This document shows positions 40,440 to 44,842 of a DNA stretch of 64,000 nt, piece by piece. The stretch comes from Bacteroidota bacterium. Lineage in GTDB: Bacteria > Bacteroidota > Bacteroidia > NS11-12g > UBA955. How positions within the stretch are numbered: the first letter of the stretch is position 1; every line of letters begins with the position of its first letter. Made by a program: the position numbers and the translations under genes. Location of the stretch: assembly GCA_023957335.1 (NCBI GenBank), contig JAMLHC010000002.1, forward strand, positions 448,809 through 512,808, given 5' to 3'. Below the pieces are notes generated by a model. It made no database searches. It saw only the letters and a program-made list of their open reading frames with translations, and was not told the DNA's origin.

Positions 40440-43120
40440 ATGGCATTAAGCTGGAACGAAATAAAAGATAGAGCATTAAAATTCTCAAAAGAATGGGCAA
40501 ATACTTCAAATGAAGAAGCAGACGCAAAGCCATTTTTAGTTGAGTTTTTTAATGTATTTGGCATTAGCAGTAAACGTGTTTCGACTTTTGAACACAGAGT
40601 GAAAAAACTGGACGACAAAGACGGTTACATTGACCTGCTTTGGAAAGGAACAATTTTAATTGAAATGAAAAGCAGGGGCAAAAACCTTGACAAAGCCTAT
40701 CAGCAAGCAAAAGAATATACACACGGACTAAAACAGCACGAATTACCGAAATACATTCTCATTTCCGACTTTGAAAATTTTAGACTTTACGACCTTGATG
40801 AAGATAAAACCGTAGAATTTAAACTCAACGACCTTGTAAATAATGTTCAGCATTTCGGTTACATTTTAGGTTATCAAAAAAAGGTTTACAAAGAACAAGA
40901 CCCTGCTAACATCAAAGCAGCCGAGTTAATGGGTAAACTTCACGACAGACTTGAAGAAATCGGCTACACAGGACATCCATTAGAAGTTTACTTGGTTCGT
41001 ATTTTATTTTTGCTGTTTGCCGAAGACACGACAATTTTCAATAAACAACAATTTCAGGAATATTTAGAACAACGGACAGCAGAAGACGGAAGCGACCTTG
41101 CAGCCAAACTGCAAGAACTTTTTCAGGTGCTGAACACACCAAAGGAAAACCGTTTTAAAAATCTTGATGAGCAACTTGCCGACTTTCCGTATGTAAACGG
41201 AAAACTTTTTGAAGAAAACTTGCCTACGGCAAGTTTCGACACAAAAATGCGTCAAGCCTTACTTGACTGCTGTTACATTGATTGGAGCAAAATATCTCCA
41301 GCGATATTTGGTTCAATGTTTCAAAGCGTAACGAACCCAAAAGAACGCAGAAACTTAGGAGCACATTACACAAGCGAAACCAATATTTTAAAACTTATCA
41401 AACCGCTTTTCTTAGATGACCTTTGGAAAGAATTTGAAAGCATCAAAGACAATAAAAACAAACTTCCTGAATTTCATAAAAAATTAAGCACCCTTAAATT
41501 CCTTGACCCTGCTTGCGGTTGCGGAAACTTTCTTGTAATTACTTACAGAGAATTACGATTGTTAGAATTAGAAATTTTAAGAGCATCAAACAAAAGTGGA
41601 CAAGGAGTTTTAGACGTAAGAGATATTATTTGGCTTGACGTTGATATGATGTGTGGTATTGAATATGAAGAATTTCCTGCACGAATTGCAGAAGTTGCAA
41701 TGTGGCTAATTGACCACCAAATGAATATGCAAATTAGCAATGAATTTGGGCAATACTTTGTTCGTTTACCGTTAAAGAAATCCGCAAAAATTATTCACGG
41801 AAACGCATTACAAACAAACTGGGAAAGCATAGTTTCCAAAAATGAACTTTCTTTCATTCTCGGAAATCCACCTTTTATTGGTAAACAAGTTCAAAAACCT
41901 GAACAAAAAGCGGATATGGAAAAAATATTTGCAGGCGTAACAGGTGGCGGAACTTTAGATTATGTAACAGCGTGGTATGTAAAAGCAGCTCAATATATTC
42001 AAGACACAAAAATTAAAGTTGCTTTTGTATCAACTAATTCAATTGCTCAAGGAGAGCAAGTCGGAATTATTTGGGGTTTGCTTTTTCATAAATATAAAAT
42101 CAAAATTCACTTTGCTCATAGAACTTTTAAATGGAACAACGAAGCAAAAGGTAATGCCGCTGTTTATTGTGTTATAGTTGGCTTCGCAAACTACGACTCT
42201 AATGAAAAACGGATATTTGAATACGAAGACATAAAAGGTGAAGCACACGAAATAAAAGTAAAAAACATCAATCCTTATTTGGTTGATGCGAAAGATATTT
42301 TGGTTGAAAGAAGACAAAAAGCAATTTCAAATGTCCCAGAAATGTGTTTTGGAAATATGCCTGCTGACGGAGGCGAATTGCTTTTTACAACAGAAGAAAA
42401 GGAGGAGTTTTTGGCAAAAGAACCCAATGCAAAAAGTATTTTAGAAAATTTATCGGTTCTGAAGAATTTATTAATAACAAAGAACGTTGGTGTTTATGGT
42501 TGGAAGACATTAATCCAACAGAATTGAAATCTTTAAAATTGGTTTTAGACAGAGTTCAAAAAGTAAAAACAATTCGAGAAAAATCATCACGTCCACAGCT
42601 TGCACAAATTCCTCATTTATTTGCTCAAATTACGCAACCAAAAGGCGTTGATTATATTGTTGTTCCTAGCGTTTCTTCGGAAAGAAGAAAATATATTCCA
42701 ATGGGTTTTGAGAAATCAAATGTTATTTCGAGTAATCTAAATTTAATTGTGCCGAGCGGAACACTTTATCACTTTGGCATATTAACGAGTGCAATGCATA
42801 TGGCTTGGGTTAAAAACATATGCGGAAGACTAAAAAGCGACTATCGTTACTCAAAAGATATTGTTTACAATAATTATCCATTTCCCGAAAAACCAACAGA
42901 CAAACAATTAAAAGCGATAGAAGAAAAAGCATTAGCGGTTTTAGATGCTAGACAGCAATTTCCTAACAGTTCACTTGCTGATTTATACGACCCTTTAACA
43001 ATGCCTCCAGCTTTAATCAAAGCACACAACGAATTAGACAAAGCAGTGGACTTGGCTTACAGACCACAAGCATTTACAAGTGAGGCAAACAGAATGGTAT
43101 TTTTATTTGACTTGTCCTGA
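40440..43120 (+). pseudogene. MmeI-like type IIG/IIL restriction-modification enzyme, frameshifted and 3'-truncated
   Basis: A fused nuclease-methyltransferase is read in two frames, 40440-42527 and 42500-43120. Residues 65-77 (D65, E75, K77 in IEMKSRG) form a PD-(D/E)XK nuclease site. DPACGCGNFLVITYRELRLLE is SAM motif I and ILGNPPFIGKQ is the amino-methyltransferase NPPF motif. The second frame holds the target-recognition and C-terminal part (YRPQAFTSEANRMVFLF). Frame is lost at A4 (42445-42448); one more A would restore KFIGSEEFINNKERWCLWLE. The 3' end is cut by the left end of the IS at 43114, so the normal C-terminal residues are replaced by two codons. Such enzymes cut unmodified DNA and protect the host by single-strand methylation. 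As sequenced it is probably inactive. Confidence 0.88.
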
Positions 43121-43126
43121 AATAAG

Positions 43127-43501
43127 TTGACAGAAATGTTAACTTTATTTCGCACAAAAATGAGTCAAAAAAGAAAAACAAAAGAGGAAATTGTTGCCGA
43201 ATATTTATCGGGCAACTACACTTATCGAGAACTTGGATTGAAGTACGATATTCCATTTCGTAGTATTTGCGATTGGGTTTTGGAATATCAAGGTCGAAAA
43301 CCAACATGGCGTGAAAAGATGAAACGCAAACGGGAAAAAGAAACAGGCGTAAAAGAGCCTGAATTACCAAACGAAGTTAAGCTCCTACAGAAGGAACTTA
43401 AAAAGCAGCAATTGCATAATAAGCTGCTTGAAGAAATCATCAATATTGCCAATAAAGAAACAGGAACCGACTGGAAAAAAAAGCTTGGCACCAAGCAATA
43501 A
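43127..43501 (+). CDS. IS3-family OrfA (helix-turn-helix protein)
   Basis: The protein has up to 124 residues; a start at the ATG at 43160 (MSQKRKTKEEIVAEYL) is likely, since the longer frame overlaps the terminal repeat. The helix-turn-helix part is YTYRELGLKYDIPFRSICDW, followed by a Lys/Glu-rich leucine-zipper-like region (VKLLQKELKKQQLHNKLLEE) used for dimerisation. It binds the IS ends. The stop TAA overlaps the orfB ATG, and a -1 frameshift signal lies just upstream. Confidence 0.88.
   Translation: MTEMLTLFRTKMSQKRKTKEEIVAEYLSGNYTYRELGLKYDIPFRSICDWVLEYQGRKPTWREKMKRKREKETGVKEPELPNEVKLLQKELKKQQLHNKLLEEIINIANKETGTDWKKKLGTKQ
43477..43496 (+). other. Programmed -1 frameshift signal (A AAA AAG plus hairpin)
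   Basis: The heptamer A_AAA_AAG (43477-43483) is in the X_XXY_YYZ register of orfA. It is followed at once by GCTTGG CA CCAAGC (43483-43496). The -1 frame is open through the orfB ATG, so slippage yields the OrfAB fusion transposase used by IS3 elements. Confidence 0.8.
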
Positions 43502-44403
43502 TGAATATAGGGCAAAGCGAAAGCCGAAGCATACAAACGCTTTGCTCATTGCTTGGTTACAGTCGGCAAGCCTTTTATAAGTTTATCAAACAATCGGAAA
43601 AAGAAGCATTGCAGCATGATTTAATTCTTCAGGAAGTATTGAAAATCAGAAAAACGCTAAAGCGATTAGGAACAAGAAAACTGCTGTTTAAAATGGAAGG
43701 ATTTATGAGAGAACAACATATTGAGATTGGCAGAGATGCCATGTTTGATTTGCTGGCAACTCATAAACTATTGATAAGGAAAAGAAAACGTAGAGTTCCA
43801 GTTACAACTTTCTCTGATCATTGGATGCGAAAATATCCAAACCTGATAATTGATTTTATTCCAACTGCTCCCAATCAACTTTGGGTAAGTGATATTACTT
43901 ACATCACGTTGAAAGATGACTTTGCTTATTTATCGCTGATTACGGATGCTTACAGCAGAAAGATAGTAGGGTTTTACTTATCAGAAACACTATCGGCAGA
44001 TGGCTGTATAAAAGCATTACTAATGGCTTTAAAAAATAATCCGCAACTGGGAAGACTCATTCATCATTCTGATAGAGGTAGCCAATACTGCTGTGCCGAT
44101 TATGTTTCAATACTTGACAAACACTTTGTTAAAATTAGCATGACTCAAAGTGGTGATCCTTTAGAAAATGCAATTGCAGAAAGGGTAAACGGTATTTTGA
44201 AAGATGAGTTGTTGGAGAAAATATACATCAATTATCAGGAAGCTAAACAAGCTATTGCGGCTGCAATTAGCATCTACAACTATCAAAGACCGCATAGCAG
44301 TATTGATATGTTAACTCCTATTGAAGCTCATTTACGAGAGGGAGAACTAAAACGCAGATGGAAAAATTATTATTCAAAAAAGAAGGAGGTTGTTATGTCG
44401 TAA
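43501..44403 (+). CDS. IS3-family OrfB transposase (DDE)
   Basis: This 300-residue rve-type integrase domain contains an HTH_21-like N-terminal part (RKTLKRLGTRKLLFKMEG) and the DDE triad: first Asp in QLWVSDITYI, second in HHSDRGSQY, Glu in PLENAIAERVNG. The C-terminal IYNYQRPHSSIDMLTPIEAH is typical. It can be made by reinitiation at the overlapping TAATG or as a fusion by frameshifting. All catalytic residues are present, so the element could still be mobile. Confidence 0.95.
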   Translation: MNIGQSESRSIQTLCSLLGYSRQAFYKFIKQSEKEALQHDLILQEVLKIRKTLKRLGTRKLLFKMEGFMREQHIEIGRDAMFDLLATHKLLIRKRKRRVPVTTFSDHWMRKYPNLIIDFIPTAPNQLWVSDITYITLKDDFAYLSLITDAYSRKIVGFYLSETLSADGCIKALLMALKNNPQLGRLIHHSDRGSQYCCADYVSILDKHFVKISMTQSGDPLENAIAERVNGILKDELLEKIYINYQEAKQAIAAAISIYNYQRPHSSIDMLTPIEAHLREGELKRRWKNYYSKKKEVVMS

Positions 44404-44437
44404 AATGAGTTTTTTTCAGGCATGAAGGGTTCAAGAA

Positions 44438-44546
44438 TAAAAAAGCCAAGCTGTTACACTTGGCTAATAAGACGTTTTATTCCGTCACCCGGAGATGTAT
44501 CCCTAGCAAGTTGCTCTCCAGCAGAGCTTGCTTTCGTTTAGTCTCC
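44438..44546 (-). ncRNA. Predicted structured small RNA, about 109 nt, antisense strand of the IS tail
   Basis: On the minus strand a TAcaTTTG element (44558-44551) is followed after 4 nt by GGAGA. The transcript would contain outer stem GGAGA/TCTCC enclosing a bulged hairpin GCAAG-CTCT...AGAG-CAA-CTTGC. Next comes GACG/CGTC with loop AATAA able to pair with TTATT directly downstream (an H-type pseudoknot). It ends in a perfect intrinsic terminator, AGCCAAG/CTTGGCT plus six T. Nothing in it is coding. The RNA class is not recognised. It may control the IS or be a passenger RNA. Confidence 0.65.
44439..44465 (-). terminator. Terminator of the predicted small RNA
   Basis: AGCCAAG, 8-nt loop and CTTGGCT form a perfect 7-bp stem followed by TTTTT TATT on the minus strand. 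On the plus strand no T-run follows, so it acts in the minus direction only. Confidence 0.8.
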
Positions 44547-44550
44547 AATG

Positions 44551-44577
44551 CAAATGTAAACCATATTTAGGATTACT
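44551..44577 (-). promoter_or_regulatory. Promoter of the predicted small RNA
   Basis: TACATTTG (44558-44551) matches the -7 consensus exactly. A TTTT tract about 20 nt upstream stands at the -33 spacing. The predicted start is the G at 44546. Confidence 0.6.
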
Positions 44578-44638
44578 GAAAAATGTGTAAACTTGTAACA
44601 GGATTTAGAACCAAAAAAGTGTCAACTTTTTTCAGGAC

Positions 44639-44842
44639 GATACACGCATCATCTTTTGTGGTGTAATGACAGTTTTGTGCTCCGAAATCCGCCACTGCGC
44701 CAAGCGCCAAACCGTTACATCCAAATAATTTGTCTAATACATTGATTGTCAGTATATTTACTGCATGAAATTCATACTTGGTAAAGACTGAAGCCAAATC
44801 AGTTTCTTTTCCAAAAAGTTTGATGTGTCTTCTATTACAAAC
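44639..44842 (-). pseudogene. Unrecognised gene fragment abutting the IS
   Basis: An open frame on the minus strand (VCNRRHIKLFGKETDLASVF, then YEFHAVNILTINVLDKLFGC and LALGAVADFGAQNCHYTTKD) runs into the right IS end at 44638, where the downstream part is lost. A stop lies just before it and no convincing start is present. Composition looks protein-like. No family is recognised. The stretch from 44843 to 44975 holds nothing else I can identify. Confidence 0.4.

What the first reader, a model, noticed from the sequence alone, without database searches (positions are those of the whole stretch)
44438..44577. Complete small-RNA gene hidden on the opposite strand of an IS3 element
The IS carries about 220 nt beyond orfB. 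Read on the minus strand this has an exact TAcaTTTG promoter element, a predicted start at GGAGA, an outer stem GGAGA/TCTCC around a 9-bp bulged hairpin, a GACG/CGTC hairpin whose loop can form a pseudoknot with the next five bases, and a perfect terminator. Promoter, fold and terminator agree in strand and spacing. No known RNA class is recognised. It could be an antisense regulator of transposition, block outside transcription, or be a cargo RNA.
Basis: partly seen in the sequence, partly recalled or inferred. Interest (0 to 1): 0.78.

Follow-up and report, generated by a model that had tools for sequence, protein, structure and literature searches.

The report
Pseudoknotted RNA shared by unrelated transposons
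A small RNA gene at the tail of this jumping gene belongs to a previously uncatalogued, strongly conserved RNA family carried by at least five unrelated families of jumping genes across the phylum Bacteroidota, which suggests a common helper or regulator of mobile DNA that does not depend on the transposase.

Summary
In detail: a minus-strand RNA gene lies between orfB and the right end of an IS3-family element, with an exact Bacteroidota-type TAnnTTTG box. It is not a feature of one IS. The same RNA occurs in 60 of 395 class-level genomes sampled, next to transposases of IS3, IS256, Zn-variant IS256 (IS1249-like), IS110 and IS481, and possibly on small RepL replicons. Outer stem P1 and stem P2 covary strongly (covariation score 0.66 against 0.23 shuffled). 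The 'GACG/CGTC hairpin plus terminator' is one long covarying arm (P4), whose T-run pairs with an upstream A-run. The RNA continues about 30 nt further, to a motif AUGSCUnnnAAAACYCA. The start of that motif forms a covarying pseudoknot with the core (AGG/CCU, AGC/GCU, AGU/ACU). The RNA is about 140 nt, not 109. Rfam has no match, and the papers searched describe none. The antisense reading is weak: the cassette is sometimes inverted relative to the transposase, and it shows no excess pairing with its own transposase mRNA start. Best reading: an autonomous, mobile-element-borne structured RNA that acts in trans, probably on a host factor. Its function is inferred.

The parts
43108..44644 (+). 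IS3-family element; ends TG ACTT GTCCTGAAA... / ...TTTCAGGACGATACA; no clear target duplication
   Evidence: sequence, right end shared with copies that have different flanks and with sister IS copies in the same genome
43160..43501 (+). orfA, HTH protein of the IS
   Evidence: Pfam HTH_28, below its cut-off
43501..44403 (+). orfB, IS3-family DDE transposase, intact
   Evidence: NCBIfam transpos_IS3 1e-72
44551..44558 (-). TACATTTG promoter box; in this IS it overlaps a subterminal repeat of the right end
   Evidence: sequence; position conserved: 44/61 relatives have <=1 mismatch to TAnnTTTG near P1 (shuffles 22%), 29 of them exactly 3 nt before the model start
44407..44548 (-). structured RNA, about 140 nt; predicted 5' end near 44546
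44542..44546 (-). P1 5' arm GGAGA
   Evidence: permutation z 9.6, 0/20000; covariation
44491..44495 (-). P1 3' arm TCTCC
44527..44531 (-). P2 5' arm
   Evidence: 4 of 5 pairs with changes on both sides
44506..44510 (-). P2 3' arm
44514..44526 (-). P3 apical hairpin CUCUGCUGGAGAG, most conserved sequence of the family
44499..44504 (-). pseudoknot 5' strand AGGGAU in the P1/P2 internal loop
44424..44490 (-).
   Evidence: permutation z 12.6; similar fold in 43 loci
44418..44423 (-). pseudoknot 3' strand AUGCCU, start of the conserved motif AUGSCUnnnAAAACYCA
44407..44417 (-). A-rich tail GAAAAAAACUC, 4 nt from the orfB stop codon

Best explanation
The segment is an independent gene for a compact, pseudoknotted small RNA that travels as an accessory module of mobile elements in Bacteroidota. 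Supported by the sequences: conserved promoter-box position, covarying stems P1, P2 and P4, a core-to-3'-end pseudoknot, and association with unrelated transposases in either orientation. Inferred: the RNA is transcribed from its own promoter, folds into a two-armed pseudoknot, and acts in trans through the conserved core (J1, P3 loop, pseudoknot) on a factor common to its hosts (a protein or the ribosome). In doing so it tunes the mobile element's expression or the host's tolerance of it, rather than pairing with one transposase mRNA.
For: Family: DNA search 32/395 genomes, covariance model 60/395, often several identical copies per genome. Structure: 92.5% of cells paired against 70.7% shuffled, covariation 0.656 against 0.229, slid versions 35-45% paired. 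P1 arms z 9.6; P4 arms z 12.6. Pseudoknot types AGG/CCU, AGC/GCU, AGU/ACU, plus a compensated insertion in L057. Strand: G-U 55 against A-C 16. Promoter box. Transposase families: IS3, Zn-variant IS256, IS256, IS110, IS481. Inverted cassettes keep the pseudoknot, P4 and tail (L056, L058, L119, L177-L179). Mobile with the element: copies share the RNA and the IS end but differ beyond it.
Against: No transcript has been seen. Trans action is inferred from orientation and family independence only. The antisense arrangement is the majority among loci with an identified transposase (about 30 to 6). Many IS3 relatives lack the RNA, including the nearest OrfB relatives at 73% (L009, L010) and the sister IS in the same genome. 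It is therefore dispensable for transposition.
Confidence: 0.5

Rival explanations
1. Antisense regulator: transcription from the right end runs against the transposase gene and represses it by RNA pairing or interference; the structured part is only a stabiliser.
For: About 30 loci with an identified transposase have the RNA convergent with it, and the RNA's 3' end touches or overlaps the transposase stop codon. No obvious terminator is conserved after the motif.
Against: IS3 loci L056, L058, L119 and IS481 loci L177-L179 carry it in sense orientation with pseudoknot, P4 and tail intact. No excess pairing with own transposase mRNA start (own -53.2, cross -53.5 kcal/mol, fraction 0.59). A strongly conserved core is not needed for this.
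Confidence: 0.17
2. Transcriptional insulator or 3'-end element: a bidirectional terminator-like arm that blocks transcription through the IS end.
For: In AT-rich genomes P4 has A- and T-runs around a GC hairpin; the window site scores as a terminator.
Against: GC-rich relatives (L147, L148, L151, L071) keep P4 without a T-run. P1, core and the long-range pseudoknot are unnecessary for termination.
Confidence: 0.13
3. Translational switch: the pseudoknot holds an AUG followed by A-rich codons and controls translation of a downstream peptide.
For: The pseudoknot 3' strand begins AUG in 34 of 41 non-redundant loci, with NNN AAA AC after AUG SCU.
Against: The downstream frame is mostly 2-36 codons, not conserved in sequence, and in several loci has a stop as third codon.
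Confidence: 0.1
4. Guide-type RNA (like omega RNA or bridge RNA) for a nuclease or recombinase encoded elsewhere.
For: Scaffold-like fold with a 3' pseudoknot and tail; some carriers are IS110 elements, whose transposases are RNA-guided.
Against: No TnpB/IscB-like gene was identified next to the RNA in the loci scanned. IS3, IS256 and IS481 transposases are not known to be RNA-guided. What follows the tail is the transposase gene or the IS's own end.
Confidence: 0.04
5. Structure used as DNA or on the other strand (transposase mRNA 3' UTR).
For: Inverted repeats are symmetric in DNA; in sense-oriented loci the RNA would lie in the transposase mRNA.
Against: G-U pairs outnumber A-C 55 to 16 on the minus strand, and the promoter box is on that strand.
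Confidence: 0.06

Closest known systems
5'tnpA RNA of IS200 (Salmonella; PMC12594629)
   Same: Small structured RNA produced by an insertion sequence, acting on host genes in trans
   Different: 5'tnpA is processed from the transposase transcript of one IS family; here a separate gene with its own promoter box is shared by at least five transposase families
stnpA, a transposon-derived sRNA that binds protein YadG (PMC11980398)
   Same: sRNA inside a transposon with its own promoter, acting through a protein
   Different: Enterobacterial multidrug-resistance plasmids; no sequence or fold relation was tested or is claimed
RNA-OUT of IS10 (own knowledge)
   Same: Antisense-orientated small RNA in an IS
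   Different: RNA-OUT overlaps and pairs with the transposase 5' end; here the RNA lies at the 3' end, shows no such pairing, and may be inverted
Omega RNAs of TnpB/IscB and bridge RNA of IS110 (own knowledge)
   Same: Structured RNAs at the ends of mobile elements; some carriers here are IS110 elements
   Different: Not tied to one protein, no guide segment recognised, different fold; no Rfam model matches

Membership tests
Rfam 15 families (4227) | Score at or above a family's gathering threshold | tested here: not met
   No match in the window or 15 relatives at gathering; none at E<=1 in seven more loci; only chance snoRNA/lncRNA hits at E<=10 in the window stretch
cis-antisense transposase regulators (RNA-OUT type) | Overlaps or pairs with the transposase translation start | tested here: not met
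   Lies at the 3' end; own-versus-cross duplex test fraction 0.59
cis-antisense transposase regulators (RNA-OUT type) | Always opposite to the transposase | tested here: not met
   L056, L058, L119 and L177-L179 are in sense orientation
Omega RNA / bridge RNA | Associated with TnpB/IscB or only with IS110 | tested here: not met
   Associated with IS3, IS256, IS481 and IS110
Structured RNA family (as such) | Covariation above shuffled and slid controls | tested here: met
Structured RNA family (as such) | Detected transcript | not testable with these tools
   No transcriptome data available

The most novel reading that the evidence does not exclude
A transposase-independent RNA module: one conserved pseudoknotted RNA recruited again and again, in either orientation, by unrelated mobile elements (IS3, IS256, Zn-variant IS256, IS110, IS481, possibly RepL replicons), which serves them through a common host target. 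This would be a general RNA accessory of mobile DNA with no described precedent that I found.
Probability: 0.45. Interest if true: 0.88.

Novelty: new variant of a known kind. Interest (0 to 1): 0.72.

Why it matters
Small RNAs of insertion sequences are known one IS at a time. A single RNA fold shared by transposases of unrelated families implies a common need or a common host target, and makes it testable how mobile DNA in Bacteroidota is kept in check or tolerated. It also supplies a new structured RNA class with a defined pseudoknot for Rfam-type annotation.

Tried and rejected
Rfam at gathering and relaxed thresholds: nothing convincing. OrfB and RNA core in viral contigs, plasmids and phages: no IS relatives, and only one credible RNA hit, at a contig end. 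Protein-coding core: the frame SSAGEQLARD is open in some loci, but in many the conserved UAAACGG puts a stop just upstream and there are one-base indels, so rejected. Antisense pairing with the transposase start: no signal. AUG as a peptide start: frames short and not conserved. HDV- or hammerhead-like ribozyme: order of strands or core does not fit (by eye). Terminator as 3' end: rejected by P4 covariation and by GC-rich relatives without a T-run. Papers: seven searches found no description; bioRxiv and most subscription journals are not covered.

Full report
OBSERVATION. The window holds an IS3-family element (about 43108-44644) with orfA, orfB and a 240-nt tail. On the minus strand the tail has TACATTTG at 44558-44551, then GGAGA/TCTCC around a 5+4 bp bulged hairpin, as reported. 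The strand folds better than shuffles (z -3.0, -3.2). Rfam has no match at gathering score, and only chance hits at E <= 10.

RELATIVES OF THE IS. Four near copies (93-97% OrfB identity) carry the same segment, with different flanks beyond the IS end. More distant IS3 elements, including the sister IS present four times in this genome, end without it; several carry a different palindrome in the same place. OrfB relatives at 73% lack it, while others at 63, 60, 59, 51, 47, 44 and 39% have it. The distribution is patchy.

A FAMILY. A class-level DNA search found the core (RNA CGGAAGCAAGCUCUGCUGGAGAGCAACUUGCCAGGGAUA) in 32 of 395 genomes. A covariance model built from seven copies found it in 60 of 395 genomes and 44 of 196 genera, often as several identical copies broken at contig ends, as repeats are. 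A phylum-level sample of mostly high-quality genomes gave 10 of 395, two of them outside the class. No genome outside the phylum was examined with the model. Copies within one genome (G116, G317) share sequence from the IS end through the RNA and differ outside, so the RNA moves with the element.

STRUCTURE. P1 arms pair with their own partners far better than with those of other loci (27 loci, z 9.6, 0 of 20000 permutations). On 62 distinct sequences, 92.5% of P1-P2-P3 cells are paired (shuffled 70.7%), 232 cells have changes on both sides (shuffled 68), covariation is 0.656 (shuffled 0.229), and slid structures give 35-45%. The alignment was fitted to the model, but the P1 permutation test was not. 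P3 itself hardly varies, so it is supported by conservation rather than covariation. G-U pairs outnumber A-C 55 to 16, which favours the minus strand. A TAnnTTTG box with at most one mismatch lies just upstream in 44 of 61 non-redundant loci (shuffles 22%; exact 26% against 1.4%), at exactly 3 nt before the model start in 29.

THE 3' HALF IS NOT AS REPORTED. A motif AUGSCUnnnAAAACYCA follows the core model by 54-75 nt in about 50 of 68 loci. The sequence after P1 pairs with the sequence just before this motif (38 loci, z 12.6, 0 of 20000). Folded alone, this stretch gives a similar arm in 43 loci: a short base stem, an internal loop, a helix, a one-sided bulge and a hairpin, then a linker of mostly 2-3 nt. 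The T-run called a terminator is inside this arm and pairs with an A-run; GC-rich loci (L071, L147, L148, L151) keep the arm without a T-run. The motif's first six bases pair with the core's AGNNAU: AGG with CCU (28 loci), AGC with GCU (10), AGU with ACU (1), and in L057 an extra base on both sides. Because the two main types may be two lineages, this amounts to at least two or three independent compensations, not dozens. The RNA is therefore about 140 nt: P1 with core, P4, pseudoknot, A-rich tail. Where the transcript ends is unknown.

CONTEXT. Among loci with an identified transposase, the RNA lies at its 3' end. It is opposite to Zn-variant IS256 (16 loci), IS3 (about nine), IS110 (L121, L180, L181, L186) and IS256 (L187). 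It is in sense orientation in IS3 loci L056, L058, L119 and IS481 loci L177-L179. The inverted cassettes keep the pseudoknot, P4 and tail; the three IS3 ones also keep an exact promoter box. The AUGGCU-type RNA is found with IS110, IS481 and Zn-variant IS256; the AUGCCU type with IS3, IS256 and Zn-variant IS256. This points to exchange between element families. In two genomes the core, without the pseudoknot partner, sits on short contigs near a RepL-like gene or a relative of it, followed by a terminator-like hairpin (L117, L118). Many other loci are cut by contig ends or show decayed elements, so solo copies cannot be excluded.

FUNCTION. Orientation and family independence argue against antisense control of the transposase. 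A direct test of pairing with the own transposase mRNA start found none (18 loci, own -53.2 against cross -53.5 kcal/mol). An insulator role does not explain the core or pseudoknot. A translation switch is not supported by the short, unconserved frames after AUG. What remains is an RNA acting in trans, most simply on a factor common to its hosts. That is inference; no transcript, partner or phenotype is known.

KNOWN OR NEW. IS-derived sRNAs acting on host functions exist (IS200 5'tnpA, PMC12594629; stnpA, PMC11980398), so the kind is known. This family differs in having its own fold and in being shared by unrelated transposases. I found no description in the papers searched, but bioRxiv and most subscription journals were not covered.

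Noticed in passing
window 40440-43117: MmeI-family restriction-modification gene split into two overlapping frames (40440-42527 and 42500-43120) and cut near its 3' end by the IS; probably inactivated.
   Followed up: partly
L009 1450-1520, L010, L011, L019, L020, L022: At the same tail position, sister IS3 elements carry a different module: a long palindrome CCCCTCTTTG...GTTCCGTTCCGCTACGCTCCAC...CAAAGAGGGG, inverted in L019.
   Followed up: no
L117 2418-2475; L118 1933-1991 and 3401-3460: The RNA core occurs on short contigs near a RepL-like replication gene (Pfam hit in L118; a relative in L117), followed by a terminator-like hairpin and without the AUGSCU pseudoknot partner; possibly small plasmids.
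   Followed up: partly
window 44514-44527 (- strand): The apical hairpin GCUC-UGCUGGA-GAGC resembles a tRNA D-arm (GCUC-AGYUGGnA-GAGC); possibly chance, possibly mimicry.
   Followed up: no
window 44545-44640: The right end of the IS carries three spaced copies of TGT(A/C)AAC...AGGA(TTA), one of which overlaps the RNA promoter, so transposase binding could control the RNA.
   Followed up: no
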